Source of the DNA: Bacteroidales bacterium 6E
GTDB lineage: Bacteria; Bacteroidota; Bacteroidia; Bacteroidales; Prolixibacteraceae
Assembly: GCA_001270045.2 (NCBI GenBank)
Contig: DF970666.1
Span: 197,197 to 261,196, forward strand
Direction of reading: 5' to 3'
Length of the DNA stretch: 64,000 bases
Part shown: piece by piece, positions 14,378 through 52,124 of the stretch
Layout of the letters: each line of letters begins with the position of its first letter
Numbering within the stretch: the first letter of the stretch is position 1
Translations under genes and position numbers: made by a program
Notes under the pieces: generated by a model
Told to the model about the DNA's origin: nothing
Seen by the model: only the letters and a program-made list of their open reading frames with translations
Databases searched by the model: none

Positions 14378-14444
14378 GGATGACATCCTTTCGTTGCATC
14401 CCTTTTCGGAGAGGATGTCATCCCTTCGAGAGGATGTCATCCCT
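14378..14444. repeat. GATGTCATCC repeat R1
   Basis: GGGATGACATCC, then the spacer TCGTTGCATCCCTTTTCGG, then two consecutive right arms GAGGATGTCATCCCTT. Orientation is forward, as judged by the spacer motif TCGTTGCAT. Confidence 0.8.
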
Positions 14445-14623
14445 TCCATACGTTGGTCGGAAAAAACACCACGTTCATGGTAAACTCTTACGCTTATATT
14501 AATTGCTTCTTAAAAATCAGCGGAATATGTTTCATTTCGATTCGAAATTAGTAAATTTGCGCTTGGACTTTTGGGATGAAAGCTTATGTGTGACTACCAA
14601 AATACATCTTTATATCTTAACCC

Positions 14624-15760
14624 ATGGACACAATATTGATATTGACTTCTGCTATATTGGCCTTTGTGCTGACCTATATATCCATTCCACCTATCATCAG
14701 GGTATCAAAAGCAAAACATCTGTTCGACGAAATCAATAAACGAAAAGTCCATAAATCACAAATCCCCTCTCTTGGCGGTGTCGCCATTTTTATTGGTTTG
14801 GTTATCAGTTTGCTGCTGACAATCAATGGCTTTGACTTTCTGAAAATGAAATACCTGTTGGCCGGTGTGATCATGGTTTTCTTTATCGGGTTGAAAGACG
14901 ACATCATGGTGATCTCGGCCCACAAGAAACTTCTCGTCCAGATCACCGCAGCCCTGATCATTACGGTTTTGGGAGGTTATCGTTTTACGAATCTTCACGG
15001 GATGTTTGGCATCCATGATTTGGGTTATACGTGGAGCGTACTGATTTCGGTATTCGCCATTGTGGGCATAACAAACGCCTATAACCTGATTGACGGTATT
15101 GACGGACTGGCATCGGGTGTGGCCATGGTGGCTGCCCTGACTTTTGGTACCTGGTTCCTGGTGGCAGGCCATCCTGAGTATGCCGTGCTTTCATATGCCC
15201 TGACGGGAAGCTTGCTGGCATTTATCCGATATAATGTCTTCGGTAAGGAATATAAACTTTTTATGGGCGATACCGGTTCGCTGATCATTGGATTGGTGAT
15301 TTCGGCCCTGGTGATCCGCTTCAATGAGGTGAATATACTGTATAACGGTCCTCATGATATAGTCGCGGCCCCAGTGGTTTCCCTGGCTGTCATCATCGTG
15401 CCGGTCATTGATACCATCCGGGTGTTCACGGTTCGCATCCTTCGCGGAAAATCACCTTTTTCGCCCGACAAGAACCATGTGCACCACTGGCTGCTTGATC
15501 TCTACAAAAACCACATCAAGGTGACTTCCACGATAGTGGTCGTCAATATTTTGCTGATCCTTGCCGGGTTGGCCATCTGCAAGATCGGGGTGAATATCAA
15601 TGTCAAGTTTGCCCTGCTCTTTATCCTGGGTATCATGGTTGCCCTGATCCCCAAATCATTGCTGATTTATCGCGATAAAAAGAACGGGATCCCCCAGCCT
15701 CAGGCCCCGGTTATCAAGAAGCCCCGGATGGAGTTTAGTGCCGTTGAGGAGGTGAGGTAG
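14624..15760 (+). CDS. WecA/TagO-like undecaprenyl-phosphate sugar-1-phosphate transferase
   Basis: The 378-residue membrane protein belongs to the MraY/WecA family, which starts lipid-linked glycans by moving HexNAc-1-phosphate from UDP to undecaprenyl phosphate. About ten or eleven hydrophobic segments are visible. Key cytoplasmic motifs are GLKDDIMV (Asp pair), NAYNLIDGIDGLA, LFMGDTGSL and DKNHVHH, which match the family's metal and substrate sites. It is probably the initiating transferase for the O-antigen or capsule made by the nearby cluster, though it is in the opposite orientation and not co-transcribed with it. Confidence 0.88.
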   Translation: MDTILILTSAILAFVLTYISIPPIIRVSKAKHLFDEINKRKVHKSQIPSLGGVAIFIGLVISLLLTINGFDFLKMKYLLAGVIMVFFIGLKDDIMVISAHKKLLVQITAALIITVLGGYRFTNLHGMFGIHDLGYTWSVLISVFAIVGITNAYNLIDGIDGLASGVAMVAALTFGTWFLVAGHPEYAVLSYALTGSLLAFIRYNVFGKEYKLFMGDTGSLIIGLVISALVIRFNEVNILYNGPHDIVAAPVVSLAVIIVPVIDTIRVFTVRILRGKSPFSPDKNHVHHWLLDLYKNHIKVTSTIVVVNILLILAGLAICKIGVNINVKFALLFILGIMVALIPKSLLIYRDKKNGIPQPQAPVIKKPRMEFSAVEEVR

Positions 15761-16148
15761 AAAAAACGTTGCGGGTTGCGAGTTGCATGATGCGGGTTGC
15801 GCTTCGCGACGTAGGCCTGCGGGGATGGGGTTCACCACAGATTGCGCGGATGAACACAGAGAGATAATTCCCAGATATCCCAAACATTATAATATTACAC
15901 GGATTGGTTTTCAGGGTTGCCTGCGGCAACCCCGAAAACATAGTGGGGTGGGGATGCACCGTTTTTACAATCATTCCACCCCGATGGGGTTTTTATCCTT
16001 TTCCAATGGATGGAATTCTTACTACCCCTCGTTGCTCCCGACAATTGTCGTGGACGAGGGGTAGGAGCGGGCGCAGCCGTCGAATAATTTTATACGGGCC
16101 GCAGGCATAGCAGTATATGTTGCTAGTGGATTGTGAGAATAAAACCCT
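15761..16148. repeat. mosaic repeat block (families F2 and F3) in 388-base gap
   Basis: The block starts with tgcgNgt heptamers (15765-15815). It continues with the element beginning TTCACCACAGATT (15830-15900), a hairpin, and the GGTGGGGTGGGGATGCACC-type segment with CCACCCCGATGGGG (15942-15990). It ends with an inverted pair built on CCCCTCGTTGCTCCCGAC (16022-16062). No gene is supported. Similar mosaics lie at 23570, 26090 and 28088. Confidence 0.75.
15907..15939. repeat. hairpin inside mosaic repeat, loop TGC
   Basis: A 15-bp stem with one mismatch, core GCC-TGC-GGC and flanking GTTTTC/GAAAAC. It is nearly identical to the hairpins at 26115 and 28162. Confidence 0.75.
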
Positions 16149-17714
16149 TTATTTATTGAAAATCTCCCGATACCGGGTTTCTATCTGGTTGATTTCGGCT
16201 TCGGTAAGAGCCCCAAATTCATTTTCCCTGGCACGTTTCGAGAGTATGCCCTTATTCTGGTCCAGGAACCTGACCAGAAGGGCGACCATTTTATCGGGCA
16301 TTTCAAATTCGTCATCCACAAAGCGTTTAAATTCATCGTATTGGGCAAAGTAGGCAACTTCGGCCGGAATGATGTTTTCGATGGTGTCGACAACACAATC
16401 ATACAGGAATTCGGCCTGAAGTGTGGCATCGAAATATCGGTAATAATCAATGGTTTCGCTAATGACTTCTATGTTATGGTCTTTCGTTTCCTTCCATTCA
16501 ATAAAGTTAAGAAGCGGATGGGAAAAGTGTTCCAACACCACCCGATAGTTGTCGATATGGTTAAGGATGGACGCGGATACCGGGAAAATGATGCCTGGCT
16601 GCGAGAATTGTTTTTTCGCTAAAGTATGATGAATCAGGTACCGGTGAATTCTTCCGTTCCCATCCTCAAACGGATGGATGAAGACAAACCCAAACGCAAT
16701 GATGGCAGCTGCCAGTACGGCATCAAACGCATTTTCGGCCAGCAGGTTGTTGGTTTTTATCAAACCATTCACCAGTGATTCAAGATCCTGCCATTTTGCC
16801 GAGATGTGCTCGGGCAGAGGTTCTCCCGTGGTTCGGTCGTATTCCCCTACAAAGCCCCCTTTCCTGCGAAATCCCATCTCAATAAACCGGGTATTTTCGA
16901 TGACGGTTTGCTGTAGCCTGATCAGTTCCCCGATGCTCAGATTTTTGGTTCCGGCTTGACCGATAGCCTGTCCCCAACGCACGGCACGTCCGCCTTTTGG
17001 GGTTTCCCCTTCAATCGTGAACGATGCTTTTGAATCTTTCAGCATGAGAAATGAAGATGCACGCTGCAGGATATCTTTGTGGATTTCGTTGAGGTATAAT
17101 TTGTTTTTTTCGGAAAAGCGGGACTCGATATAATGTTCGAGTTTCAGGGTTTTCCTGATAAGCGGACAAAATTCGGGTGTGCCCGGAAGATTGTTGATGA
17201 CCAGATGCCGGGATGATTTTTCGCCTTCTATGGCATATTGCAGCTTATCGTCGAGCAACGGGATGTAGCTTTTTCGGGTAAGGTCTTTTTTTCCTGCCAG
17301 TTTTTCACCCGAAATCCATTCAACCAGGAACCAGATTCTCCGGCTGTATTGTCCGGTTGGTTCAATATGGCAAAGATCGGTCAGTTGTTTCGTCGAATAG
17401 TGTAGGGTGAGTTTTCGATAAACCAGAAGATTTACACCTTCATATTTCAGGGCAAAAACCAGATGTTTGTATAATGCCTCAATTTCGGTCATATCCTGGT
17501 TATCTTCAGGTAAATAGGATTTGGGCAGGATCTTCCAGTCATCCGTTTGGTAATTCTTGTTCCGGGTGCAGACAAGCGTGATCTGGTTTGGAATGGGCAC
17601 TTGCAGACCCAACTTATCAATGATGGCTGAATATCCAACGATATGTCCTTCTTCGGGGCATTGCTTTCCGTGAAAAATGAGTGTTGCCTGAGAAAAATGG
17701 GTGTAATTATTCAT
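16149..17714 (-). CDS. Fic family protein (class II, self-inhibited type)
   Basis: The 521-residue protein has a canonical Fic motif HPFEDGNGRIHR at residues 347-358. His347 would be the catalytic base for moving AMP (or another nucleotide moiety) to a target hydroxyl. An SFTIEG stretch at 231-236 fits the (S/T)xxxE(G/N) inhibitory helix and lies before the Fic core, which defines class II. The N-terminal 200 residues are not recognised. The C-terminal part, which includes LTEAEINQIETRYREIF, may be a small helical or winged domain. Targets are unknown. It begins the toxin-rich island and is followed upstream by repeat R2. Confidence 0.85.
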   Translation of the reverse strand: MNNYTHFSQATLIFHGKQCPEEGHIVGYSAIIDKLGLQVPIPNQITLVCTRNKNYQTDDWKILPKSYLPEDNQDMTEIEALYKHLVFALKYEGVNLLVYRKLTLHYSTKQLTDLCHIEPTGQYSRRIWFLVEWISGEKLAGKKDLTRKSYIPLLDDKLQYAIEGEKSSRHLVINNLPGTPEFCPLIRKTLKLEHYIESRFSEKNKLYLNEIHKDILQRASSFLMLKDSKASFTIEGETPKGGRAVRWGQAIGQAGTKNLSIGELIRLQQTVIENTRFIEMGFRRKGGFVGEYDRTTGEPLPEHISAKWQDLESLVNGLIKTNNLLAENAFDAVLAAAIIAFGFVFIHPFEDGNGRIHRYLIHHTLAKKQFSQPGIIFPVSASILNHIDNYRVVLEHFSHPLLNFIEWKETKDHNIEVISETIDYYRYFDATLQAEFLYDCVVDTIENIIPAEVAYFAQYDEFKRFVDDEFEMPDKMVALLVRFLDQNKGILSKRARENEFGALTEAEINQIETRYREIFNK

Positions 17715-17779
17715 TGGCCAATAAATCTGAGTGCAATTTATGGAAAATCCGGGGGTAATGCAAGAATTATGAGTGCAAA

Positions 17780-17866
17780 AAGGATGACATCTTTTTACGA
17801 TGACGAATGCAACGAGAAGATGTCATCTTTTTCGCAGAGGTCCTCAACGAGAAGATGTCATCCTTT
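17780..17866. repeat. GATGTCATCC repeat R2
   Basis: One AGGATGACATCTTTTT arm, the reverse spacer TACGATGACGAATGCAACGA, then GAAGATGTCATC arms at about 17816 and 17851. It is reverse-oriented and fills the gap between the Fic gene start and the SEC-C gene stop. Confidence 0.8.
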
Positions 17867-17871
17867 GGTTT

Positions 17872-19065
17872 TCAATTCCCGCAACAGTGCTTATACTTGC
17901 GGCCGCTGCCGCAGAAACAGGGGTCGTTTCGCCCGATTTTTTTGTGGGGCTGCCCGGGTGGGTTGGGACTGCCGGTGATGTTCGGGTCAAGGGGGAACTG
18001 CACAACCCGGCCTTCCTTATCGGGTTGGCCTGAAGGTTTTGGATAGACAAACGGGGTTTTGGGCAATGGCATGAGATTCGGTTTCTCGTATTTCTCGAAT
18101 ACCTCGCGGGAGGTATTGCCTTTCAGGATCCAGCGGGGGAGATGGTTGGTGTACTCCATGAAGGCCTTGATAAATTTCTGCACATCCTTTTTTTCGAAGG
18201 TAATGGATTCAATGATTGACGATAGGACATCGGAAACGTGGAGATCGTTGTTCAACATCATCCAGACATCGCGGAGCTTATATTGGGCATCCTCATCTGA
18301 ACCCATGTATATTCTGAGCATTTTCCTGAATTCCGCTGTGCCCGGATTAACCGGTGGAATGGGAAGGTACGAATCTCCGGCAGCCATTACCTCTTCCAGG
18401 CTGAATATCTTGTGGGGGATATCCTGGCGTACACTGAATTCGTAAAACAGTTCGGGCCCGGGTTCCATGTAGGGTGATATGTACCATGAGCCATAATCCT
18501 CGAGTACGCTGCTCTGCAATTCGTAGGAGGCGTCGATGCATTTCATGACATCGTAGGTATGAAATTCGGGATCATACCTGCGGGCGATCTTCTCAAGGTC
18601 GGTAAAAGCAATCATTCCGTAGAGGTTGATCAGTCCGGTCAGCAGTTGCCTTCGCCTGAATTTGGTTGAATTCGGGTCCTGGCTGGCGATATAGGGATCG
18701 ATCCTGTTTTTCAGGCGCTCGACCAACTCAAAGCTGGGAAAAGAATGCATTTCATCATTGTCATTGTCCTTGATAAACAAAACGATGCCCATCATTTCGA
18801 GCGAGTCGCGTTTCAGGTCCCTGTTGTCGTAGGGTCTTGGTGTGGGATCGTTGACCCAGCCGCGAAGTCTCATCAGTTCGCCCCACGACAGCGCGTTGAG
18901 GACCACCAGCGGTTCCCTTAAAATCACGTCAGCCAATTTTTCGGCAAACGGTTCCTTGCGGAGGGAGGAGCTGATCTTGACATGCAGCTGTCGTGCATTA
19001 TTCACCAGGTCTTCTTTGGTGCCGCTCATGAGCATGTCCTTCAGGGAGATGATGGGTAGTTCCAT
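17872..19065 (-). CDS. SEC-C motif protein of unknown function
   Basis: The 397-residue protein ends in a SEC-C zinc-binding motif (GRNDPCFCGSGRKYKHCC), the same short module found at the end of SecA and in many unrelated proteins. The rest is soluble and mostly helical, with no recognised catalytic motif or signal peptide. A Pro-rich linker (about residues 350-375) precedes the zinc motif. Its place among toxin-antitoxin genes hints at an accessory role, but nothing in the sequence defines it. Its 3' end adjoins repeat R2. Confidence 0.7.
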   Translation of the reverse strand: MELPIISLKDMLMSGTKEDLVNNARQLHVKISSSLRKEPFAEKLADVILREPLVVLNALSWGELMRLRGWVNDPTPRPYDNRDLKRDSLEMMGIVLFIKDNDNDEMHSFPSFELVERLKNRIDPYIASQDPNSTKFRRRQLLTGLINLYGMIAFTDLEKIARRYDPEFHTYDVMKCIDASYELQSSVLEDYGSWYISPYMEPGPELFYEFSVRQDIPHKIFSLEEVMAAGDSYLPIPPVNPGTAEFRKMLRIYMGSDEDAQYKLRDVWMMLNNDLHVSDVLSSIIESITFEKKDVQKFIKAFMEYTNHLPRWILKGNTSREVFEKYEKPNLMPLPKTPFVYPKPSGQPDKEGRVVQFPLDPNITGSPNPPGQPHKKIGRNDPCFCGSGRKYKHCCGN

Positions 19066-19187
19066 GGATATAATAGTTGACGATATGTTTCAAAATTAGG
19101 ATTTTTTCAGGTGGTTTCTGTTGCTTGTGGAAATTATTTGGGGAGGTGCTTCACTTCGTTCAGTATGACAACGTCAGCACTTTACAA

Positions 19188-19227
19188 GGAGAGGGGCAAT
19201 GGCGGCTGCGCGCCATTGCCCCTCTCC
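19188..19227. repeat. perfect 17-bp hairpin, 6-base loop GCTGCG
   Basis: GGAGAGGGGCAATGGCG pairs exactly with its complement around GCTGCG. It is an exception to the usual 3-nt loop of the hairpin family in this window. Confidence 0.75.
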
Positions 19228-19372
19228 CCCTACTTATAACGCCATGCCTGTCATCCTGAGTGCAGCGAAGGACCTCAGCCCATCACTCTCCCCCTACTTA
19301 TAACGCCATACCAGTCATCCTGAACGTAGTGAAGGAATACATATATAGCTAAACCAATAATATATTCTTTAA

Positions 19373-19404
19373 TTTGCGATATAATATAGAAATATCTATA
19401 TTTA
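19373..19404 (+). promoter_or_regulatory. hipBA promoter with overlapping inverted repeat
   Basis: TTTG (19373-19376) and TATATTTA (19397-19404) are 20 bases apart, close to the Bacteroidota -33/-7 pattern. The inverted repeat ATATAG-N6-CTATAT (19384-19401) covers the -7 element and could be the operator for HipB autoregulation. The ATG follows 22 bases later. Confidence 0.5.
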
Positions 19405-19426
19405 CATCAAAGAAATATTTCATGTC

Positions 19427-19714
19427 ATGGACATTGATCTGTATGAAAAATCGGGGACGGAAATCATCCGTGAGTTGGGGAAGCGGTATGGGATATATCG
19501 CAGGAAAATGGGGATAACCCAGCGGGAAGTGGCCGAGCGTTCGGGTTTGAGCGTATTCACCATCAGTTCGTTCGAGAATGGCTCATCAACAGGCATTACC
19601 CTGGCATCGTTGGTCAAACTGCTCCGGGCAATCGGGTTCCTGGAGGAGATCGGAAAATTGCTTCCCGACTTGCCTGAAAGTCCGCGCAGCCTGTTCATGA
19701 AACAAAACCGATAG
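19427..19714 (+). CDS. hipB: HipB-like XRE-family antitoxin/regulator
   Basis: The 95-residue protein is a helix-turn-helix DNA-binding protein; REVAERSGLSVFTISSFENG spans the recognition helices (about residues 33-52). By homology to HipB it would bind and neutralise the HipA kinase and repress the operon. It starts about 20 bases after a putative promoter with an inverted-repeat operator. The stop lies five bases before hipA, so the pair is co-transcribed in the usual antitoxin-first order. Confidence 0.82.
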   Translation: MDIDLYEKSGTEIIRELGKRYGIYRRKMGITQREVAERSGLSVFTISSFENGSSTGITLASLVKLLRAIGFLEEIGKLLPDLPESPRSLFMKQNR

Positions 19715-19719
19715 CTGCC

Positions 19720-20976: not shown

Positions 20977-21022
20977 CTTTGGGCTGACAGTCCAGCGTGA
21001 AAGAATAGAAAGCCATTTTGGA

Positions 21023-21982: not shown

Positions 21983-22234
21983 CTTCCCTCTGCCCCTCGT
22001 CCTCGATAGTCATCGGGAGCAACGAGGGGCCAACAAGTATGCATTTGCAATGCATAGGTCTATTTAAAAACAATTCCTAACTGGATTAGAAACAACATGT
22101 ATGGGTTACAAACCCATTGCCCATAACCCCTCGTTGCTCCCGACAGTTGTCGTAGACGAGGGGTAGGTACAGTCAGGAAGGGAAATGCCCTTTCCCTACT
22201 TGTTCCATACCAAAATTTGTTGTAACTTTCATAC

Positions 22235-22350: not shown

Positions 22351-23490
22351 ATGAAAACGAATTCGAGGATCTATGTGGCCGGGCACCTGGGATTGGTGGG
22401 CTCGGCAATCTGGCGGAAGCTGGAAAGCAAGGGATATACCCACTTGATCGGTAGCTCCATCGGGGAGCTCGACCTGCTCGACCAGCCGTTGGTGGCCCGG
22501 TTCTTTGCCGAGGAGAAGCCTGAATATGTGGTGCTTGCGGCTGCCAGGGTGGGCGGAATTGTCGCCAACAATACCTACCGCGGACAGTTCATCTACGAAA
22601 ACCTCCAGATACAGAACAATATCATCCACCAGTCGTACCTCCATGGGGTGAAGAAACTGCTCTTCCTGGGCAGTACCTGCATATACCCGCGAGAGGCGCC
22701 CCAGCCGATGCCCGAGGATTGCCTTCTGACGGGCGAGCTGGAGTACACCAACGAGCCGTATGCCATTGCCAAAATCGCCGGACTGAAACTTTGTGAGAGC
22801 TACAACCTGCAATATGGCACCAACTTCATCGCGGTAATGCCCACTAACCTGTACGGCCCCCACGACAATTTCGACCTTGAGAAGTCGCATGTGCTGCCAG
22901 CCCTGATTCGCAAGATCCACCTCGGAAAGTGCCTCGAAAGCAATGATTGGAAGTCGATTCGTGAAGACCTGGACAAGCGTCCGGTCGAAGGGGTGACGGG
23001 GCAGTCGGATGACATGGATATCCTTAGGGTGCTGGAGAAATATGGTATCCTAAGGAAGCCGGGCAAGGACGGGGAGGGGGCGTGCGAAGTGGAAATCTGG
23101 GGCTCGGGCCGTCCGATGCGTGAGTTCCTGTGGAGCGATGACCTGGCCGATGCGTGTGTCTTCCTGATGGAAAACATCGATTTCAAAGACATTGCCGGAA
23201 TCCGCAAGGGGGGACGATTCAACAGCGAACCGCCTGGTGAGATACGGAATACCCATATCAACATTGGCACCGGACAGGAGACTTCGATCAGGGGACTGGC
23301 ATACCTGGTCCGCCGGACGATAGGCTTTCACGGCGACCTGATCTTTGATCCGTCGAAACCCGACGGCACCATGCGCAAACTCACCGACCCCTCGAAACTC
23401 CATGCCCTCGGCTGGCACCATACCGTTGGTATCGAGGAAGGGGTGGCGAGGCTGTATGGATGGTATGCCAAAACGGTGCGTGGTGCGTGA
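22351..23490 (+). CDS. fcl: GDP-L-fucose synthase
   Basis: The enzyme converts GDP-4-keto-6-deoxy-mannose to GDP-L-fucose (epimerase plus NADPH-dependent reductase). The start is set at the ATG at 22351, giving YVAGHLGLVGSAIWRKL as the NADPH-binding fold near the N-terminus. The SDR catalytic triad is visible as Ser in LGSTCIYP and the YAIAK Tyr/Lys. At about 379 residues it carries an insertion compared with the usual 320, as is common in Bacteroidota. The expected partner GDP-mannose dehydratase (gmd) is not in the window. It sits inside the toxin-rich island, flanked on both sides by repeats. Confidence 0.9.
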   Translation: MKTNSRIYVAGHLGLVGSAIWRKLESKGYTHLIGSSIGELDLLDQPLVARFFAEEKPEYVVLAAARVGGIVANNTYRGQFIYENLQIQNNIIHQSYLHGVKKLLFLGSTCIYPREAPQPMPEDCLLTGELEYTNEPYAIAKIAGLKLCESYNLQYGTNFIAVMPTNLYGPHDNFDLEKSHVLPALIRKIHLGKCLESNDWKSIREDLDKRPVEGVTGQSDDMDILRVLEKYGILRKPGKDGEGACEVEIWGSGRPMREFLWSDDLADACVFLMENIDFKDIAGIRKGGRFNSEPPGEIRNTHINIGTGQETSIRGLAYLVRRTIGFHGDLIFDPSKPDGTMRKLTDPSKLHALGWHHTVGIEEGVARLYGWYAKTVRGA

Positions 23491-23869
23491 TATGAAAACG
23501 TTGCGGGATGCGTGATGTGAAAACGTTGCGGGATGCGTGATACGCGTTGCGAGGTGGCCTACGGGATTGGTTCACCACGGATTACACGGATGAACACAGA
23601 TGGATAATTCCCGGATATGCCAAACTTTATAGAATTACACAGATTCATCCGACGGCTTACTTTGTTAGCCTTGGATGGCCTTGAAATCCCGAACGCGTCC
23701 CCGATGGCTCGGGGCTATCGTAGCCGGACGGGAGCGGGGATGGGGTTCACCACGGATTACACGGATGAACACAGATGGATAATTTCCGGATACCCCAAAC
23801 TTTATAGAATTACACAGATTCATCCGGTGGCTTACTTCGTTAGCCTAGGATGCCTGCGGAGATAGTATG
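23491..23869. repeat. mosaic repeats in 379-base gap: heptamers plus two F2 copies
   Basis: The heptamer family (AACGTTGCGGGATGCGTGAT twice, 23500-23560) is followed by two nearly identical F2 elements at 23570-23665 and 23746-23850. Each begins TTCACCACGGATTACACGGA and ends near the CATCCG..GGCTTACTT..GTTAGCC motif. The last bases (23866-23880) hold a partial GATGTCATCC arm. No gene is supported. Confidence 0.75.
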
Positions 23870-24328
23870 TCATCCTTTAAAAGTCGCCCCCAAAGCCCTT
23901 CTGATCTTTCTCTTAACGGTTCTTGAGTTTTTTATGCAATTTATGATTGCAACAAATTCGGGCTCCAGCAGTTTACCCACGATTTCATAATCGATTTCTT
24001 GAACAGAATAGAGATTTTTAAATTTGCATTTATCAAATAATGCAACCTGGGGCCCGTAGATGTAGGTTTCTAATGGAAATCCCCGTCCTTCATCAGTAAT
24101 GGGCTTCTGTGCTTCAAAATAGTAACAGTTGAAGTTAATATCGGGCAAATCGATGCACCCATGACTTTTCTCTATTTGAGCTGGGATATGATCTTTACTG
24201 GTAGGCAGAGTCGCAATCAATGTATTTTCCGGAGAGGTTGCAAGAACGATGAAGTATTTGTTTTTTACCTTACCACCGTCAGGAAAATAAAAAGGGGTAA
24301 AGTACAAAATGTTGCCTGGCGTGTACAT
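23870..24328 (-). CDS. probable PanT-type toxin with PemK/MazF-like fold
   Basis: The 152-residue protein begins MYTPGNILYFTPFYFPDGGK and continues with KNKYFIVLATSP and LIATLPTSKDHI. This spacing resembles the SH3-like barrel of PemK/MazF/CcdB toxins. It starts two bases after the stop of a Panacea-domain protein. Known PanAT systems pair this antitoxin with many unrelated toxins, so the gene order supports a toxin role. The C-terminal tail is basic (VKRKIRRALGATFKG). Whether it is an endoribonuclease or acts otherwise cannot be read from sequence. The 3' end abuts repeat DNA. Confidence 0.55.
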   Translation of the reverse strand: MYTPGNILYFTPFYFPDGGKVKNKYFIVLATSPENTLIATLPTSKDHIPAQIEKSHGCIDLPDINFNCYYFEAQKPITDEGRGFPLETYIYGPQVALFDKCKFKNLYSVQEIDYEIVGKLLEPEFVAIINCIKNSRTVKRKIRRALGATFKG

Positions 24329-24330
24329 TC

Positions 24331-25156: not shown

Positions 25157-25567
25157 ATGAAAACAACAATCTGGATATTTCATTGGTTTCCAAGGATAAT
25201 CTGTATTCTTGCCATTCTCTTTGTCAGCATGTTCGCGGCCGATGCCTTTGCTCCCGGACTAACCATCTGGCAGCAGCTGGGGGCGTTCGTGATGCATCTG
25301 ATCCCTTCCTTCATTTTGATTGCCTTCCTGCTGGTGGCCTGGAATTGGGAGCTTGTCGGGGGAATTGTCTTTATCGTCATCGGACTGGGACTAAGCCCAT
25401 TCATATTTATGCTCAACTACAACCGAAACCATTCGGTGGGAACTAGCCTGGGTATAATCGCCATGATCACTTTCCCTTTTATAGTGGTTGGTATCCTGTT
25501 TTTGGTCAGTCACTTTTTAAAGAAGAGGGGTGGGGGATATGGGGTTGCCCACGGATTACACGGATGA
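25157..25567 (+). CDS. small four-helix membrane protein
   Basis: The 136-residue protein has four hydrophobic segments (about 10-30, 40-62, 66-82 and 94-116) and no recognised catalytic motif. It resembles small uncharacterised DUF-type membrane proteins of Bacteroidota. The last residues (YGVAHGLHG) and the TGA stop are encoded by the start of an F2 repeat (CACGGATTACACGGATGAAC), so the native C-terminus may have been replaced by the repeat. A GATGTCATCC repeat follows immediately. Function is unknown. Confidence 0.6.
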   Translation: MKTTIWIFHWFPRIICILAILFVSMFAADAFAPGLTIWQQLGAFVMHLIPSFILIAFLLVAWNWELVGGIVFIVIGLGLSPFIFMLNYNRNHSVGTSLGIIAMITFPFIVVGILFLVSHFLKKRGGGYGVAHGLHG

Positions 25568-25575
25568 ACACAGAG
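25548..25575. repeat. short F2 repeat fragment overlapping gene end
   Basis: CACGGATTACACGGATGAAC matches the 5' part of the F2 elements at 23570 and 23746. It encodes the last residues and stop of the upstream membrane protein. Confidence 0.75.
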
Positions 25576-25622
25576 GATGACATCTTTTCCGTAAATGAAT
25601 GCAACGAAAAGATGTCATCCTA
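25575..25622. repeat. GATGTCATCC repeat R3
   Basis: GAGGATGACATCTTTT, reverse spacer GTAAATGAATGCAACGA, then AAAAGATGTCATCC. A single left and right arm, the simplest form in the window. Confidence 0.8.
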
Positions 25623-25940: not shown

Positions 25941-26390
25941 TGTGCAATCGTTTTAAATGTCGCTGCAAAAAACATACAATCTTTAGTATAATTACAAAAG
26001 TAGATATTTATGGCTAACAAATGAAGCTGAAATTTAATGGTCATAAAGAAAATAGGGATCCCTGGGTGGGTTTCGCTATTTTCCGCCATTATTCACCACG
26101 GATTACAAGGATTGGTTTTCTGGGTTGCCTGCGGCAACCCAGAAAACAAGGTGGGGTGGGGATGCACCGTTTTTACAATCATTCCACCCCGATGGGGTTT
26201 TTTTATGATTTCCAATGGATGGTTTTTACAAATATGCCATCCCTGCGGGATTAAAACCATTTCCCATTGGAAAACAAACCCTTCAAGGCGCTAAGGGATC
26301 TTAGGACGTGCAAAAAAAATCTCGTTTACGACCCCGGATTTTTTCGGGGGTGATCAAGGCACCAGCCTCGGTTAAATTTCACTTAAAACC
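25941..26390. repeat. 450-base gap with F2 mosaic repeat
   Basis: F2-type sequence starts near 26090 (TTCACCACGGATTACAAGGA) and runs through a perfect hairpin. The GGTGGGGTGGGGATGCACCG segment follows (26149-26169), then CCACCCCGATGGGG up to about 26240. No gene is supported. 26265-26385 shows nothing clear beyond AT-rich promoter-like DNA. Confidence 0.65.
26115..26147. repeat. perfect 15-bp hairpin, loop TGC
   Basis: GTTTTCTGGGTTGCC pairs exactly with its complement around TGC. The stem is identical to that at 28162-28194, whose loop is GCA, the reverse complement. Confidence 0.85.
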
Positions 26391-28060: not shown

Positions 28061-28505
28061 ATATACATTCGCCTATTCGCTGTTTTTCACCATGGAAACA
28101 ACAGATGAACACAGAGGGATTATTCCCGGATAACCCAAACATCATGTAATTACACAGATTGGTTTTCTGGGTTGCCGCAGGCAACCCAGAAAACAAGGTG
28201 GGGTGGGGATGCACTGTTTTTACAATCATTCCACCCCGATGGGGTTTTTTATAATTTTCATTGGGTTTTTTAAAGAATCATTCCTCCCGCTCACTAACGC
28301 ATCCGGGATCGAAAACGAACCCATATATTTGTGCCATATGGCTTTACCAACGGGATTATAACCATTTTCCCATTGGAAAATGAATTGTAAGGAAAGGGCA
28401 TGCCCTTTCCGCCCTTTGCGAAAATCCAAAATGTGGAATTTTAAAATTTCCAAATGAAATCCCTTGCCTGGATTTGCCTTACGGCGAATCCTTGGGGGGT
28501 GTGTT
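28061..28505. repeat. F2 mosaic repeat in long gap before tRNA-Pro
   Basis: F2-type sequence (28088-28260) includes GATGAACACAGAGGGATTAT, a perfect hairpin, the GGTGGGGTGGGGATGCAC segment and CCACCCCGATGGGG. The remaining part, up to 28505, has short TTTCCCATTGGAAAA palindromes near 28368. Frames that appear open here have no family features and I do not call them genes. Confidence 0.65.
28162..28194. repeat. perfect 15-bp hairpin, loop GCA
   Basis: Same stem as 26115-26147 (GTTTTCTGGGTTGCC and complement) but with loop GCA instead of TGC. This looks like an inversion of the hairpin within an otherwise same-oriented repeat. Confidence 0.85.
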
Positions 28506-37208: not shown

Positions 37209-37269
37209 TTAATGGCGAAGCAAAAGCCCGCAGGCCACCTCGCATCACGTAACCCGCCTCTCGCAACGT

Positions 37270-37695
37270 TTATTTCCTTTCTTTAACGATAAGTGTAGTT
37301 GTCGGCACTTTGCTCAGTGCATTGAAAACCATGTCGTGGCCCAGACAGAGGCCCAGCACGATGTTCAGTTGGGTGCCGGCTTCGGCCAGGAATTGTGCCT
37401 GTCCGGCCGGATTGCAGATGGTGCCTTTGCCTTCCTCCACAAGATCGGCGGCCGGCACATGGCCGTATTTGCAGTGCACCCTCGCCACCTTGAATCCGGC
37501 CTGGGTAAACTCCAGTTCCAGTGCCTCGGCCTCGCGGGTGAAAGAGGTGCAATGGGCGATGCCAATGGTTAGCAGGTCGGCTCGACGGGCATACTCCAGC
37601 AACTCCTGCACACGGCTCTTTCGCATCCGGCGGATGGCCTCCGCATGCGTCATTATACGGAGATTCTCAGGGGAGTATAAGGCTTTATGAGACAT
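37270..37695 (-). CDS. DUF1847-like protein
   Basis: The 141-residue protein resembles the C-terminal part of DUF1847 metal-binding proteins. Features are HCTSFTREAEALE, VHCKYGHVPAADLV, TICNPAGQAQFLA and GLCLGHDMVFNA, with five Cys residues and several His that could bind metal. The N-terminal Cys cluster found in longer relatives is absent, so it is either a short form or truncated. It lies downstream of a thioredoxin in the thiol-redox group. The function of the family is unknown. Confidence 0.6.
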   Translation of the reverse strand: MSHKALYSPENLRIMTHAEAIRRMRKSRVQELLEYARRADLLTIGIAHCTSFTREAEALELEFTQAGFKVARVHCKYGHVPAADLVEEGKGTICNPAGQAQFLAEAGTQLNIVLGLCLGHDMVFNALSKVPTTTLIVKERK

Positions 37696-38231: not shown

Positions 38232-38330
38232 TCGGATGACATCTTTCCAAATTTATCGGATGACATCTTTTTCGTTGCATCCGTCTACGTAGAAGATGTC
38301 ATCCGTTTAAAAGATGTCATCCGTTTAATC
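38232..38330. repeat. GATGTCATCC repeat R4, double-armed
   Basis: Two left arms (TCGGATGACATCTTT at 38232 and 38256), the forward spacer TTCGTTGCATCCGTCTACGT, and two right arms (AAGATGTCATCCGTTTAA). The TTAA at its right end gives the TAA stop of the OsmC gene on the minus strand. Confidence 0.85.
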
Positions 38331-41427: not shown

Positions 41428-41490
41428 CGAGTTACGGGGTGCGTGAAAACGTTGCGCGGTGCGAGTTGCGGGTTGGCCTGCGGACATGGG
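41428..41490. repeat. tgcgNgt heptamer array
   Basis: Degenerate units such as GCGAGTTGCGGGTTG beside the redox-cluster control region. Same family as 11640 and 15765. Confidence 0.55.
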
Positions 41491-46257: not shown

Positions 46258-46349
46258 GGTGTTTAATGTTTTTATTAAAAACATTAAACAGATACGATTG
46301 TTCACTGGCAATTGCCCATTGCCAGCGAATGCCTTATATTGGATTTTGG

Positions 46350-46388
46350 AGGTTTCCGTAGACGGCCTTTGGCCGTCTACGGAAACCT
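46350..46388. repeat. perfect 18-bp hairpin, loop TTT
   Basis: AGGTTTCCGTAGACGGCC pairs exactly with its complement in the 5' region between divergent genes. It is too near both starts to be a terminator, so a regulatory or structural role is possible. Confidence 0.8.
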
Positions 46389-46435
46389 GCCGTTTAGTTT
46401 TTTTATAGATTTGTGGAAATCACAAATCCATAAAA

Positions 46436-48037: not shown

Positions 48038-48042
48038 CGTAG

Positions 48043-48061
48043 GGGTTGGCAGCGCCAACCC
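48043..48061. terminator. 8-bp hairpin after YfcC-type gene
   Basis: GGGTTGGC-AGC-GCCAACCC, preceded by GTAG, five bases after the stop codon. It lacks a strong T-tract. Confidence 0.5.
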
Positions 48062-48085
48062 TCATTTGAGAATGCTGGTCGCAAT

Positions 48086-48136
48086 GAAAGATGTCATCTT
48101 TTTCGATGCATTCGTCAACGAAAAGATGACATCTTA
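48086..48136. repeat. GATGTCATCC repeat R5
   Basis: AAGATGTCATCTTTTTCG, forward spacer ATGCATTCGTCAA, then CGAAAAGATGACATCTT. The arms are inverted relative to R1-R4, but the spacer keeps the GCATTCGT core. Confidence 0.8.
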
Positions 48137-48162
48137 TAGACCCTTGCGTGCCTGAAAATGTC

Positions 48163-48636
48163 TTACCTCAGGAAGGATGAATACATCCACACCAGCTTTT
48201 CCTGTTCACGGATGTAGTCACTCATCAGGGCGTTGGTCCCTTCGTCGTTGGCATCGCCCGACAGGTCGAGGAGTTCGCGCTGCATGACCAGCAAGGTCTT
48301 GAAAGCCTCGAGGATGGCCTCGACTGCCTTTCTGCCTTCGGTGACTTTTTCACTCTCCTGGATGGTTGATATTTTCCGATATTCCGAGAAACTGTGGTGC
48401 GGGGTATGGCCCAGGGTGAGGACACGCTCGGCCACCTCGTCGATCTTTGTGAAAAGGTCGTTGTACAACTCCTCGAACTTCAGGTGCAGTTCAAAGAATT
48501 TCTCTCCCTTGATGTTCCAATGGTAGCCACGGACATTCTGGTAAAAGATGGAATAATTGGCCAGCAATACATTGAGTTTGCCGGCAAGATTTTCTGATTT
48601 TTGTACGTCAAGACCAATTGAATTTATGTTTTTCAT
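48163..48636 (-). CDS. dps: Dps-family ferritin-like DNA-protection protein
   Basis: The 157-residue protein forms the four-helix Dps fold. The ferroxidase residues appear in NVRGYHWNIKGEKFFELHLKFEELYNDLFTKIDEVAERVL (His about 39, later His and Asp/Glu). Dps oxidises ferrous iron with hydrogen peroxide, stores it and can coat DNA. It fits the oxidative-stress theme of the neighbouring redox cluster but is a single gene. Its upstream region holds several small hairpins; no operator was recognised. Confidence 0.9.
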   Translation of the reverse strand: MKNINSIGLDVQKSENLAGKLNVLLANYSIFYQNVRGYHWNIKGEKFFELHLKFEELYNDLFTKIDEVAERVLTLGHTPHHSFSEYRKISTIQESEKVTEGRKAVEAILEAFKTLLVMQRELLDLSGDANDEGTNALMSDYIREQEKLVWMYSSFLR

Positions 48637-48696
48637 GATTGTTGAATTTTGTTTTTGTTTATATTATTATAACAAAACATTCAACAAAATGTTCAT

Positions 48697-48725
48697 GATT
48701 ATGGTTGGCTGTGCCAACCATAATC
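48697..48725. repeat. perfect 13-bp hairpin, loop TGT
   Basis: GATTATGGTTGGC pairs exactly with its complement, upstream of dps. Two smaller relatives follow at 48745-48761 (GCAGGCC-TGC-GGCCTGC) and 48809-48827 (GGGTTGGC-TGC-GCCAACCC, preceded by GTAG). Confidence 0.75.
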
Positions 48726-48885
48726 CCTGTGAATGCACAGGCACGCAGGCCTGCGGCCTGCATACCTGATGTTAACATGATTGTTCATTTTCCAAATGGT
48801 GTTCGTAGGGGTTGGCTGCGCCAACCCTATTACCATATGTTTTATGGTTTACCAAAATGCACCCCGGAATCCTATTGTTATGAAT

Positions 48886-48926
48886 GTTTTACTGGATGCC
48901 GGTCGCAGACCGGCATCCAGTAAAAC
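48886..48926 (-). terminator. perfect 19-bp hairpin, loop GCA, after symporter gene
   Basis: GTTTTACTGGATGCCGGTC pairs exactly with its complement and begins two bases after the symporter stop on the minus strand. Four T residues close the 3' arm, so it likely ends transcription. Confidence 0.75.
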
Positions 48927-48927
48927 C

Positions 48928-50757
48928 CTATTTATCTGGTAATTTGTCCCACCAGGTCCTCTTGAGGACAATGGCGGAGATCACGACGATGATGGAGCTG
49001 ATCCAGATGGGTACGGATTTCTGGAGGACAATGTAAATTGGCAGGGCAATCAGGGCGGTTTGGGCAATGGTGCCCATCAGCACGTTGAACATGTCGATGC
49101 CGAAGTTCTTGTTGGGCTTGAAGCCTGGGTTCTCGGCCAGTACCTTCATACGAATCGGTTTCCAGAATCCCCATGGATTGACGGTCGAGTAGAACGATTT
49201 CAGGGTGGCTTCATCGGTAGGCTTCGACAGGAACGTGCCTGCCAGCGCACCCGCCAGCGAGATCAGCAGGATCCACGGGAAGTACCAGAGATCGAGCGTA
49301 TCCTTGAACAGGTAAGGAAAGATCAGGGCCGGGATGATACCTGCCACCATACCCCAGAAATAGCCGTAGCCGTTGAACCTCCACCAGTACCATTTCAGGA
49401 CGTTCGAGATTACGTAACTTCCATAAAGCGCCGAGACAATCCATTGCAGCACACTGTTGACGTCCTGGGCGAAAATGCCGAAGATGATGCTGATGATCAC
49501 CACGATGATCCCGCTGGAATAGTTGAGGTTACGGATCTGTTTTTCGTTGGCGTCGGGCCTGAAATATTTCAGGTAGATATCGTTGACAATATATGCCTGA
49601 GCGGCATTCAGGGTTCCGGCAAAAGTACTGTTAAACGCTGCGAGGAGTCCGGCCAGCAGCAAGCCCATGAGTCCGACCGGCACAAACTGGCTGATGGCTG
49701 ACGGCAGGATCTGCTCGAAGTCGATACGCCCCGCCACCACCAGGTGCAGTTGGTCGTAATAGATCAGGGCCAGGACCGCAAAGCCGGCAATCATGAAATA
49801 GCGTACAGGCATTAACACCACCGAAACAAAGCCACTCATCTTGGCAGCCTCTTTGGGCGATTTGGTGGCCAAAACTTTCTGCATGTCGTAATTGGGTGCC
49901 GGTCCCGCAAGGGATAGAAGTATACCTTTAAATACCATCATCCAGAAGAAAATGGTGAATAGGGAGTAGCCGTCGCTTGCAATCTTGTCGTTCACCTCAT
50001 TGATGATCCCGCGCCAGTCGAGGTCATCGAGCTTCCATCCGAAGAAAGGGGTGTGCCATCCTTCGGGAACATTGAGTGTATTGGCTGCCAGTGCTTTCAT
50101 GGCAATGATGCCAATGACGATGGCAGCTACCGTCATGATCAAAAATTGAAGTACGTCTGCCCAAACGATACTGGTCATGCCTCCCAGGATGGCATAAAAA
50201 ACCGCAAACATGGTGAAGGCGATCCCATACAAATGGGGCACATAAGTTTCTGGGACATCAAAGGGGATGAATGGAGCCACACTTTCCCAGGGGATGAAGA
50301 TCATCATGAATTTTCCAAGCCCAATAAAACCGTATGCCAGAAAGCCCAGACAGTTGATCAGGGCGAATATGACAATGATGCCATGCGACAACTGGCTGTC
50401 CTTTTTTCGGCCGAAGCGGGTAAGCATCCATTCGGCCCCCGTGGTGACGTTTGACCGGCGGAGCCATATGCTGAGGAAAACCATCAGGAAGATCTGGTTA
50501 AAGACGGGCCAGAGCCATGGGATCCAAATGCTTTTGAGTCCGTATACAAAGAGGAGCGTCACCAGCCACATAGTCCCAGAGATGTCGAACATACCGGATG
50601 CATTGGAAATACCCAGCATATACCAGGGCAACGTATTTCCACCCAGAAGGTAGTTGGATTTGCTTTTCTGGGCTTGCTTTTTCAGGATGATGCCAATAAA
50701 TACCGTGGAAAACAGGTAGACAAGGATGATGGCGATATCCAGACCGGTCAGCTTCAT
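48928..50757 (-). CDS. sodium:solute symporter (SSS family)
   Basis: The protein has about 609 residues from the ATG at 50757 (MKLTGLDIAIIL); a start at 50772 is also possible. About fourteen hydrophobic segments follow the SSS layout, including LLGGNTLPWYMLGISNASGMFDISGTMW (the Na+/substrate region of helix 1-2) and LLLAGLLAAFNSTFAGTLNAAQAYIVNDIY, the helix 8 family signature. Substrates in this family are sugars, amino acids or vitamins. The nearby GH130/AGE operon and secreted glycosidases make a sugar plausible. It lies alone on its strand. Confidence 0.87.
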   Translation of the reverse strand: MKLTGLDIAIILVYLFSTVFIGIILKKQAQKSKSNYLLGGNTLPWYMLGISNASGMFDISGTMWLVTLLFVYGLKSIWIPWLWPVFNQIFLMVFLSIWLRRSNVTTGAEWMLTRFGRKKDSQLSHGIIVIFALINCLGFLAYGFIGLGKFMMIFIPWESVAPFIPFDVPETYVPHLYGIAFTMFAVFYAILGGMTSIVWADVLQFLIMTVAAIVIGIIAMKALAANTLNVPEGWHTPFFGWKLDDLDWRGIINEVNDKIASDGYSLFTIFFWMMVFKGILLSLAGPAPNYDMQKVLATKSPKEAAKMSGFVSVVLMPVRYFMIAGFAVLALIYYDQLHLVVAGRIDFEQILPSAISQFVPVGLMGLLLAGLLAAFNSTFAGTLNAAQAYIVNDIYLKYFRPDANEKQIRNLNYSSGIIVVIISIIFGIFAQDVNSVLQWIVSALYGSYVISNVLKWYWWRFNGYGYFWGMVAGIIPALIFPYLFKDTLDLWYFPWILLISLAGALAGTFLSKPTDEATLKSFYSTVNPWGFWKPIRMKVLAENPGFKPNKNFGIDMFNVLMGTIAQTALIALPIYIVLQKSVPIWISSIIVVISAIVLKRTWWDKLPDK

Positions 50758-50826
50758 ATACTGGGAATGCATTATTGATTTGTCGGGAGCAAGGATACAA
50801 ATTATTACTATTTTTTGCAAGGGCAG

Positions 50827-50858
50827 TTTTGGTGGCTTGCGCCAGCAAGCCACTAAAA
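50827..50858. repeat. 14-bp hairpin with one G-T pair
   Basis: TTTTGGTGGCTTGC pairs with GCAAGCCACTAAAA around a four-base loop, upstream of the symporter gene. Confidence 0.65.
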
Positions 50859-50953
50859 TAAATAAAGATCGATAAAGTCGGTGCTGCCGACATTATCGTC
50901 TTTCATGTTTATGTCAAAGGCAAGGTGGAACAGCCGCATTTCATCAGATTTTT

Positions 50954-50961
50954 ATAAATTT
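50954..50961 (+). promoter_or_regulatory. -7 element TAAATTTG before GH20-like gene
   Basis: Perfect TAnnTTTG match 20 bases before the ATG at 50982, implying a very short leader. Confidence 0.45.
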
Positions 50962-50981
50962 GATGAAAAAAATTGAAACCT

Positions 50982-52049
50982 ATGAAAAAACTGTCTTACC
51001 TATTTATGTTGATGTTGGCGGTAAGCATGACCGCCGCCGCCGTGGATTTTCCCATGAAGGGTTTGTGTGTGGCGGCTCCTGCCAAGGCTGACGTGGATGA
51101 ATTCGTTACGCTTATTGACACAAAACTGGCTCCCGCTGGTGTCAATACCCTGATCCTAAGGGTTGACTTCGGTTATGAGTTTAAGTCGAGACCCGAACTC
51201 AGGGATCCCAATCCGCTTTCAGAAGCAGATGTCAAGAAGCTGGTGGCCGTGTGCAAAAAACACAACATCCGGTTGGTACCGCAGATTAACCTGCTGGGAC
51301 ATCAGTCGTGGTCGACAAACATTGGCAAATTATTGGAAGTATACCCCCAATTCGACGAAACTCCCGGGATCAACATGCCTGAAGAGTATAAGTGGCCCAA
51401 CCCTGATGGATTGTACTGTAAAAGTTATTGTCCGTTGCACCCGGAGGTCCATGAAGTCGTCTTTGATCTTGTTGATGAGATAGTGAAGGTGTTTGAGACC
51501 GACGCATTTCATGCCGGCATGGATGAGGTGTTTTACATTGCGCATCCCGACTGCCCACGATGCAGTGGCCATGATCCTTCGGTGCTTTTTGCCGGGGAGG
51601 TCACCAAAATCCGCAATCATCTGGCCGAATCGGGTGCTGAGCTCTGGATCTGGGGCGATCGCCTGATCGACGGCAAAACCACCGGTATTGGCTTGTGGGA
51701 GGGCAGTTATAACCATACACACCGCGCCATCGACATGATTCCCAAGGATGTCCTGATTTGCGACTGGCACTATGAACGCGCCCATCCGACGCCGGTACTG
51801 TTTGCATCCAAAGGTCTCAATGTGGTTGCGTGTCCTTGGAACAAACCTGCCGTTGCAGAAGCCCAGGTGGACATGATGGAAATGTTGCGTGCCAACGCCC
51901 CCCAGATCATGAAGGATCGCTATGCCGGCATCATCCATACATACTGGAGTGGAGCCCGTGGCTTTATGGACGGAATGCTGGAGAAGACTGAACGTGGCAA
52001 GAACGATCCCTCCGTACAGACATTCAAGGCGTTGATTGCCAAGTGGTAA
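50982..52049 (+). CDS. secreted GH20-like glycoside hydrolase
   Basis: The start is set at the ATG at 50982 (MKKLSYLFMLMLAVSMTAAA), giving 355 residues with a signal peptide of about 20 residues. The barrel carries NIRLVPQINLLGHQSW and FHAGMDEVFYIAHPDCPRC; the Asp-Glu pair in GMDE matches the catalytic pair of GH20 beta-hexosaminidases. It lacks the extra N-terminal domain typical of full GH20 enzymes, so it is a short family 20-type protein whose substrate is unproven. It is followed by repeat R6 and a GH5 gene. Confidence 0.72.
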   Translation: MKKLSYLFMLMLAVSMTAAAVDFPMKGLCVAAPAKADVDEFVTLIDTKLAPAGVNTLILRVDFGYEFKSRPELRDPNPLSEADVKKLVAVCKKHNIRLVPQINLLGHQSWSTNIGKLLEVYPQFDETPGINMPEEYKWPNPDGLYCKSYCPLHPEVHEVVFDLVDEIVKVFETDAFHAGMDEVFYIAHPDCPRCSGHDPSVLFAGEVTKIRNHLAESGAELWIWGDRLIDGKTTGIGLWEGSYNHTHRAIDMIPKDVLICDWHYERAHPTPVLFASKGLNVVACPWNKPAVAEAQVDMMEMLRANAPQIMKDRYAGIIHTYWSGARGFMDGMLEKTERGKNDPSVQTFKALIAKW

Positions 52050-52051
52050 AT

Positions 52052-52124
52052 TAAAAGGATGACATCTTTTAAAAGGATGACATCTTTTTGTTGACAGACG
52101 CATCGTAAAAGATGTCATCCTGTA
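52052..52124. repeat. GATGTCATCC repeat R6
   Basis: Two left arms AAAAGGATGACATCTTTT (52054 and 52070), reverse spacer TTGTTGACAGACGCATCGTA, and one right arm AAAAGATGTCATCCTG. It fills most of the gap between the GH20-like and GH5 genes. Confidence 0.82.

What the first reader, a model, noticed from the sequence alone, without database searches (positions are those of the whole stretch)
14378..52124. Directional dispersed repeat built from GATGTCATCC arms
Six full copies (14378, 17780, 25575, 38232, 48086, 52052) and a fragment at 23866 share arms AAGATGTCATCC / GGATGACATCTT around a spacer. The spacer keeps TTCGTTGCATYCGT and gives the element a direction: R1, R4 and R5 forward, R2, R3 and R6 reverse. 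Arm number varies from one to two per side, as if units are gained and lost. All lie just after genes; R4 gives the OsmC stop codon. This looks like a REP- or MITE-like family mobilised in trans.
Basis: partly seen in the sequence, partly recalled or inferred. Interest (0 to 1): 0.72.

Follow-up and report, generated by a model that had tools for sequence, protein, structure and literature searches.

The report
Jumping-gene palindromes with their own enzyme
The scattered repeats are real, and they are small mobile palindromes (a REP/REPIN family) very probably spread by a REP-type tyrosine transposase whose gene, elsewhere in the same genome, is bracketed by the same palindromes; the same short DNA word is paired with related transposases in distant bacterial groups.

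Summary
Six window copies exist at the stated places. The host genome carries 123 arm pairs (reversed control 0). The unit is a 9-nt odd palindrome, GATG-A/T-CATC, mostly in inverted pairs about 35 nt apart (or 18-26) around a loosely conserved spacer. Fold and covariation support one long hairpin.

Contig C7 of the same genome encodes a 200-aa RAYT flanked on both sides by four-arm elements. Its predicted fold matches TnpA-REP best (PDB 4er8, E 3e-8). The congener G002 carries the same locus, cut by a contig end. Of 77 RAYT-like loci inspected, 8 had GATGWCATC on both sides and 1 on its only assembled side, across Bacteroidota, Ignavibacteria and Neomarinimicrobiota. Some other RAYTs carry other palindromes. 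Among 36 genomes not chosen by the element, all 4 with such a RAYT have dispersed pairs, against 1 of 32 others.

It is a GTAG-less REP/REPIN family with a RAYT lacking the printed WQ motif: a new variant of a known kind. Movement itself was not shown. Fifteen of 21 genomes found by the element gave no arm-flanked RAYT; one with 145 pairs gave no RAYT match.

The parts
14378..14442 (+). R1: three arms (GGATGACATCCT, AGGATGTCATCC twice) with spacer TTTCGTTGCATCCCTTTTCGGAG; 34 nt after ORF 13733-14344(+)
   Evidence: ssDNA fold z -5.3
17780..17865 (-). R2: three arms, two different spacers sharing the middle arm; 9 nt from the 3' end of ORF 17872-19065(-)
   Evidence: fold z -3.9
23864..23875 (+). 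Degenerate single arm AGTATGTCATCC
   Evidence: 2 mismatches; this class also arises by chance
25573..25622 (-). R3: two-arm hairpin element, 8 nt after the DUF7670 ORF (25157-25567 +); absent beside the matching right flank in G002
   Evidence: fold z -7.1
38234..38322 (+). R4: four arms (two per side), between thioredoxin and OsmC genes; OsmC stop codon 2 nt outside the outer arm
   Evidence: fold z -9.35
48088..48135 (+). R5: two-arm element with arm centres T then A, between convergent DcuC-type carrier and ferritin-like genes; no arm pair near the DcuC homologues of G001 and G003 (G001 has one isolated GATGTCATC about 0.8 kb downstream)
   Evidence: fold z -6.1
52053..52122 (+). R6: three arms, 8 nt after the GH20 ORF 50973-52049(+); spacer TTTGTTGACAGACGCATCGT is in forward, not reverse, orientation
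   Evidence: fold z -5.6

Best explanation
The repeats are a REP/REPIN family: pairs of short directional palindromes (GATG-A/T-CATC plus flanking bases) that can fold into one long hairpin in single-stranded DNA. Their probable mover is the RAYT (TnpA-REP-like HUH/tyrosine endonuclease) encoded on contig C7, whose gene is bracketed by the same elements. The enzyme would bind the palindrome pair in exposed single-stranded DNA, cut with its tyrosine, and paste copies elsewhere; copies that land just behind genes survive best. Units are then gained and lost. Shown here: the repeat family, its hairpin potential, the linkage to RAYT genes in several phyla, the co-occurrence, the gene-end bias, and unit-number differences between homologous sites. 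Inferred: binding, cleavage chemistry, single-stranded substrate, copying, and survival as the cause of the gene-end bias.
For: Linkage: RAYT ORF L051:2392-2994(-), with four-arm elements 147 nt and 53 nt away; G002 holds the left element and a RAYT 90% identical over residues 53-198, cut by the contig end. Of 48 RAYT-like loci, 6 have arms on both sides and 1 on its only assembled side. Of 29 further loci from 393 genomes of the order, 2 have GATGWCATC and 1 has GATGSCATC on both sides. Co-occurrence: 4 of 4 genomes against 1 of 32. Within the genus, covariance-model matches number 137 in G000 and 31 in G002 (both strands), and 0 in the other five. Enzyme: NCBIfam REP_Tyr_transpos E 1.6e-12 (47.5 bits, below its cut-off of 80); AlphaFold model pLDDT 93; best PDB fold 4er8, the REP-associated tyrosine transposase bound to a REP hairpin; H61, H63 and Y136 invariant in 17 of 17 aligned proteins. 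Hairpin: two variable arm positions pair across arms in 110 of 130 cases, shuffles mean 77.5, maximum 93 in 5000. Place: 26 of 57 elements within 40 nt of a gene 3' end and 2 of 57 within 40 nt of a 5' end; random intergenic placement gives 10% for the 3' test. Unit gain or loss: paralogous C2 sites differ by a 24-nt arm-bearing segment; the C24:430002 site has 4 arms in G000 and 2 in G002.
Against: No clean single-insertion empty/filled pair was obtained: flanks in relatives are too diverged or rearranged. Of the 21 genomes found through the element itself, 6 gave an arm-flanked RAYT (one of them, G002, on one side only); 15 did not, and three of these (G154 with 145 pairs, G156 with 1, G158 with 2) have no RAYT match at E 0.001. 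G503 has 3 pairs although the RAYT locus read there carries another word. The window holds no RAYT. Pfam Y1_Tnp is weak (E 0.12). Shared descent of copies also makes arm positions covary. The elements beside the G000 RAYT use 18-nt spacing, whereas most dispersed copies use about 35 nt. In the wider tree the GATG-flanked RAYTs are not one supported group.
Confidence: 0.85

Rival explanations
1. The arms are binding sites for a conserved host DNA-binding protein (nucleoid, regulator or terminator factor), kept in place by selection; the RAYT association is incidental.
For: The 9-nt word is the same in Bacteroidota, Ignavibacteria and Neomarinimicrobiota while spacers differ, also between copies of one genome (the scan itself asked for fixed arms). 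Copies sit at gene ends. Several element-rich genomes have no arm-flanked RAYT found.
Against: Two of 140 genomes of the family carry the exact pattern; RAYT genes themselves are bracketed by the word in several phyla; other RAYTs have other words in the same layout.
Confidence: 0.07
2. They are transcription terminators or mRNA 3'-end stabilisers that arose repeatedly.
For: Strong hairpins next to gene 3' ends; copies in the Cytophagales genome bin6 extend a longer stem unique to each copy.
Against: Stem sequence would not need to be fixed; the word is fixed. Presence is patchy between species of one genus. This may still be a secondary effect of mobile copies.
Confidence: 0.04
3. MITEs moved by a classical (DDE) transposase with these arms as terminal repeats.
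For: Inverted arms around a spacer.
Against: The arms flank HUH-type RAYT genes; arms also occur in threes and in arrays of up to 15. DDE transposases were not searched for.
Confidence: 0.04

Closest known systems
REP/REPIN-RAYT (TnpA-REP) systems, canonical GTAG type (PMC3733652: abstract, section 16 and passages read; PMC6006769: abstract, sections 12 and 15 and passages read)
   Same: Short palindromes in inverted pairs, many copies behind genes, RAYT gene flanked by the same palindromes on both sides, one RAYT match in G000, patchy distribution, TnpA-REP fold.
   Different: No GT[AG]G tag (19 of 57 elements hold GTRG or CYAC within 12 nt, 33.5 expected from random placement); the unit is a 9-nt odd palindrome; no W stands in the column that phmmer aligns, weakly, with a W of 4er8.
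TnpAY1 subclass 2.6 (Bertels group 5), Bacteroidetes, with atypical GTAG-less flanking structures (PMC6006769, sections 12 and 15)
   Same: Bacteroidetes, REPs without GT[AG]G, copies elsewhere in the genome, Y---NP motif.
   Different: Printed key motifs NH[LIV]H, WQ and YIH[QN]NP are not matched: the 7 arm-flanked rows have NHFH, no WQ, and Y[TI]H[YSH]NP in 6 of 7. HuH-Y gap 59-76 aa by my measure against a printed median of 82. The supplementary REP table could not be read. (NHFH does fit the printed subclass 2.4, but its WQ and YIxNNP do not.)
TIRYT / TIRtrons (PMC3733652, section 16)
   Same: Tyrosine transposase flanked by repeats unrelated to GTAG REPs, some self-complementary and repeated in the genome.
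   Different: Printed shared TIR motif GGGGWSAS, not the word here; PMC6006769 places most in subclass 2.1 with C-terminal HTH-like domains. Pfam showed no HTH domain in the RAYT here.

Membership tests
RAYT / TnpA-REP (class 2 TnpAY1) | HuH motif and catalytic tyrosine in Y---NP context | tested here: met
   NHFH and YTHYNP in the G000 RAYT; H61, H63, Y136, N140 invariant in 17 of 17. L164 and L175 have NA in place of NP
RAYT / TnpA-REP (class 2 TnpAY1) | TnpA-REP fold | tested here: met
   best PDB match of the predicted model is 4er8, E 3.1e-8, TM 0.56/0.66, rmsd 4.9
RAYT / TnpA-REP (class 2 TnpAY1) | NCBIfam equivalog NF047646 above cut-off | tested here: not met
   47.5 bits against cut-off 80, E 1.6e-12
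REPtron | RAYT gene flanked by the repeat that is dispersed in the genome | tested here: met
REP, GTAG superfamily | GT[AG]G tag at the foot of the hairpin | tested here: not met
   19 of 57 elements with GTRG/CYAC within 12 nt against 33.5 expected
REPIN | two REPs in inverted orientation joined by a spacer, folding as one hairpin | tested here: met
   18 of 75 long-spaced pairs are in direct orientation
TnpAY1 subclass 2.6 | key motifs NH[LIV]H, WQ, YIH[QN]NP | tested here: not met
   against Table 1 of PMC6006769
RAYT activity | cuts and joins its cognate REP as single-stranded DNA | not testable with these tools
   needs protein work

The most novel reading that the evidence does not exclude
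This branch of RAYTs reads a small code. Each enzyme pairs with a 9-nt odd palindrome of fixed layout (four bases, one centre base that gives direction, four complementary bases) set as inverted pairs. Related enzymes have switched words: GATG-A/T-CATC, GATG-C/G-CATC, GATA-C/G-TATC, GAGC-G/C-GCTC, GAAC-G/C-GTTC, with TTTG, CCTG and TCTG words in other lines. The GATG word would then be an old enzyme-DNA pairing kept across several phyla.
Probability: 0.4. Interest if true: 0.65.

Novelty: new variant of a known kind. Interest (0 to 1): 0.5.

Why it matters
It extends REP/RAYT systems with a concrete, easily searched recognition word and its enzyme in groups where REPs appear little described. 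The natural set of related enzymes with different words offers a direct way to find which residues read which bases, and so to test how RAYTs and REPs evolve together.

Tried and rejected
The other Y1 transposase of the genome (C10:36178-36522) was considered as the mover. It is an IS200/IS605-type protein (NCBIfam NF033573, 75.3 bits, cut-off 55) set among a different repeat (AACCCCGTAGGGGTGACA), so it was rejected. Rfam at gathering thresholds finds only a tRNA in the window. Searching papers for the motif strings gave 62 papers, 20 listed; by their titles none concerns bacterial repeats. Six literature searches listed no description of this motif that I could recognise; supplements were not open to me, so it may be in print there.

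Clean empty sites were sought against genus relatives. Alignments with G002 often stop at elements, but diverged intergenic DNA would also cause that, so I claim little from it. The gene calls are naive; one search repeats the test with ORFs of at least 150 aa, and the 40-nt limit there was my choice. An integron attC reading was left aside without a test. For the second tree I dropped 7 of the 36 rows (long or partial). Of 35 matches, 29 new loci were read; 5 were not fetched and 1 is the query itself. The other-word palindromes had no chance control: 13 of the 26 loci without GATGNCATC shared an odd palindrome on both sides, several of them A/T-rich words that may be chance, and 13 shared none. 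In one search the 20 genomes G140-G160 (without G146) were found through the element and are left out of the co-occurrence count.

Full report
Observation. All six copies and the fragment are in the window. Two details change: R6 is forward by its spacer, and the OsmC stop codon lies 2 nt outside the outer arm of R4. A naive gene map puts all six within 34 nt of a gene 3' end.

Genome-wide. The window lies in contig C1 of a 4.44-Mb, 99.97% complete genome. It holds 40 exact GATGACATCTTN{6,36}AAGATGTCATC pairs, 82 exact AAGATGTCATCC arms counting both strands and 123 GATGWCATC pairs; the reversed control is 0 in all three. A covariance model built from 24 units gives 137 matches on both strands, where only 150 of 3732 candidates were scored. 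I catalogued 57 elements in the fetched stretches.

Anatomy. The unit is a 9-nt odd palindrome, GATG-A/T-CATC, mostly with AA or AG before it and TT or CT after it. Of 100 successive exact-arm pairs, 72 are 34-38 nt apart and 28 are 18-26 nt apart. Of the 75 pairs that the script classes as long (26 nt or more), 46 are A-then-T, 11 T-then-A, 11 T-T and 7 A-A. Among 65 units with arms 34-37 nt apart (62 distinct), two variable arm positions pair across arms in 110 of 130 cases; shuffles give 77.5 on average and at most 93 in 5000. Shared descent also contributes to this. The centre position alone is weaker: 51 of 65 against 44.2, reached by 86 of 5000 shuffles. The six window elements fold as single-stranded DNA with z from -3.9 to -9.35, the RAYT-flanking element with -11.4. 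The spacer consensus in this genome runs from TCGTTG to TCTTCGG. GTRG or CYAC is rarer than expected near the arms (19 of 57 against 33.5).

Place. With ORFs of at least 150 aa, 26 of 57 elements lie within 40 nt of a gene 3' end, against 10% for random intergenic placement, and 2 of 57 within 40 nt of a 5' end; 4 of 57 fall inside such an ORF. The ORF map is naive.

The linked enzyme. On contig C7, ORF L051:2392-2994(-) encodes a 200-aa protein with NHFH and YTHYNP. Four-arm elements lie on both sides. NCBIfam names it REP-associated tyrosine transposase at E 1.6e-12, though below the curated cut-off; Pfam Y1_Tnp gives only E 0.12. The AlphaFold model (pLDDT 93) matches 4er8, a RAYT bound to a REP hairpin, best (E 3.1e-8). 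The congener G002, which is the record Prolixibacteraceae bacterium UBA5740, has the left element and a RAYT 90% identical over residues 53-198, cut by the contig end.

Other genomes. The exact pattern N{18,26} occurs in 2 of 140 genomes of the family. In a scan of one genome per species it occurs in 58 stretches from 21 genomes: 10 Bacteroidota, 10 Ignavibacteria-type and 1 Neomarinimicrobiota, by record titles. Spacers differ, also within genomes; the arms are alike because the scan asked for them. The RAYT protein matched in 22 of 28 handles searched; G146 is G002 again, so 21 of 27 distinct genomes. Of 48 loci read, six have arms on both sides: G000, Ignavibacteria RIFOXYB12, Ignavibacteriota IGN3, Neomarinimicrobiota NIOZ-UU87, Chitinophagaceae RH-14apr17-330 and Marinilabiliaceae N1Y90. 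One more (G002) has them on its only assembled side; L185 has one arm some 0.75 kb away on one side. In 393 genomes of the order, 32 had matches at E 1e-30; of 29 new loci read, L205 and L227 have GATGWCATC and L208 has GATGSCATC on both sides. Of the other 26, 13 share some odd palindrome on both sides and 13 share none by this test. Clear cases in the same layout are GATASTATC (L206), CCTGWCAGG (L219), TTTGWCAAA (L212) and TCTGSCAGA (L224); the close sisters L155 and L157 carry GAGCSGCTC and GAACSGTTC. No chance control was run on these words.

Tree. In the first tree (36 rows) all 7 arm-flanked rows fall in one group of 12 with support 93/93; the label needs 4 changes, 3 of 500 shuffles as low. 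In the second (58 rows, 10 labelled, L208 included) the label needs 6 changes against 9.4 for shuffles, 0 of 500 as low, starred branches force at least 3, and the former group of 12 is not held together; its bootstrap had not settled. The GATG word is clustered but is not one clade.

Co-occurrence. Of 36 genomes not chosen by the element (7 of the genus, 29 with RAYT matches), the 4 with a GATGWCATC-flanked RAYT have 123, 12, 9 and 24 pairs; of the other 32, one (G503) has 3 and 31 have none. G000 is the query genome itself, and for G225 and G374 only one of several RAYT loci was read. The counts include the pairs beside the RAYT. Against this stand 15 of 21 element-found genomes without an arm-flanked RAYT; three of them have no RAYT match at all, among them G154 with 145 pairs. 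Loss, gaps in draft assemblies or more distant RAYTs could explain them; none of these was tested.

Turnover. Paralogous sites on C2 differ by a 24-nt arm-bearing segment, and two C13 sites differ in array make-up. At C24:430002 the G002 site has 2 arms, one degenerate, against 4. R3 is absent beside the matching right flank in G002; in G002 the DUF7670 homologue loses homology at GATGC and continues into the right half of an element. At C24:425513 G002 lacks arms but keeps a spacer-like remnant. R5 and R6 have no arm pair near the homologous genes of G001 and G003, at 71-73% identity; G001 has one isolated GATGTCATC about 0.8 kb behind its DcuC homologue, and no pair anywhere. No clean one-event empty site was found.

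Comparison with what is known. Most catalogued REPs carry a GTAG or CGTC tag (PMC3733652, abstract). PMC6006769 describes a Bacteroidetes subclass, 2.6, with atypical GTAG-less flanking structures; its printed key motifs differ from the proteins here. phmmer aligns, weakly, a W of 4er8 with R120 of this RAYT, and no W stands in that column in 17 of 17 rows. I therefore place it with REP/REPIN-RAYT systems, not in subclass 2.6: a new variant of a known kind. For PMC3733652 and PMC6006769 I read the abstracts, the named sections and passages; PMC2817692 and PMC3116915 were seen in search listings only.

Verdict. The most novel open reading is a family of RAYTs with switchable 9-nt odd-palindrome words.

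Noticed in passing
G000 C10:36178-36522 (L053:2125-2628 +): A second Y1 transposase (IS200/IS605 type, NF033573 75.3 bits) lies among many copies of another repeat, AACCCCGTAGGGGTGACA: possibly a second enzyme-repeat pair in this genome.
   Followed up: partly
G000 C5:39304-39778 (L049): An array of 15 GATGWCATC-like arms with a higher-order spacing of about 101 and 75 nt and a different spacer (AACCCACAACCCCAA).
   Followed up: no
G000 C9:12500-16000 (L052): Fourteen listed model matches in 3.5 kb; four arms read there have C or G at the palindrome centre (GATGCCATC/GATGGCATC). The same centre swap flanks the RAYT of L208.
   Followed up: no
G000 C25:341058-341102 and 361397-361441 (L061, L062): Two nearly identical stretches carry the same element shortly after an ATG (MKPIIDHIQITVKD...), possibly inside a broken gene start; the stretch upstream differs in element content.
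   Followed up: partly
window 15907-15939, 26115-26147, 28162-28194: 33-nt palindromes GTTTTCTGGGTTGCC..GGCAACCCAGAAAAC, part of another dispersed repeat (I7, I9).
   Followed up: no
window 16024-16065, 21990-22029, 22126-22167: Dispersed inverted repeat CCCCTCGTTGCTCCCGACARTTGTCGTRGACGAGGGG (D19, I6, I8).
   Followed up: no
window 11634-11705, 15761-15822, 23470-23579, 41444-41477, 37224-37273: Dispersed AAAACGTTGCGGGATGCG-type repeat on both strands; near some copies lies a CACGGATTACACGGATGAACACAGA repeat.
   Followed up: no
window 52112: The longest ORF after R6 would start at an ATG inside the outer arm of R6; the downstream ATG at about 52144 may be a likelier start.
   Followed up: no
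L074, L086, L092, L105, L111, L126; also L107: In the Cytophagales genome bin6, and in L107 of another Cytophagales genome, the inverted repeat continues outside the arms with a sequence that differs from copy to copy, as if the element sat in the loop of a terminator hairpin.
   Followed up: no
L201 (G002:C32) against L060 (G000:C24): A 3.6-kb segment lying between two elements in G000 is in permuted order in G002, with a break at exactly L060:4156/4157.
   Followed up: partly
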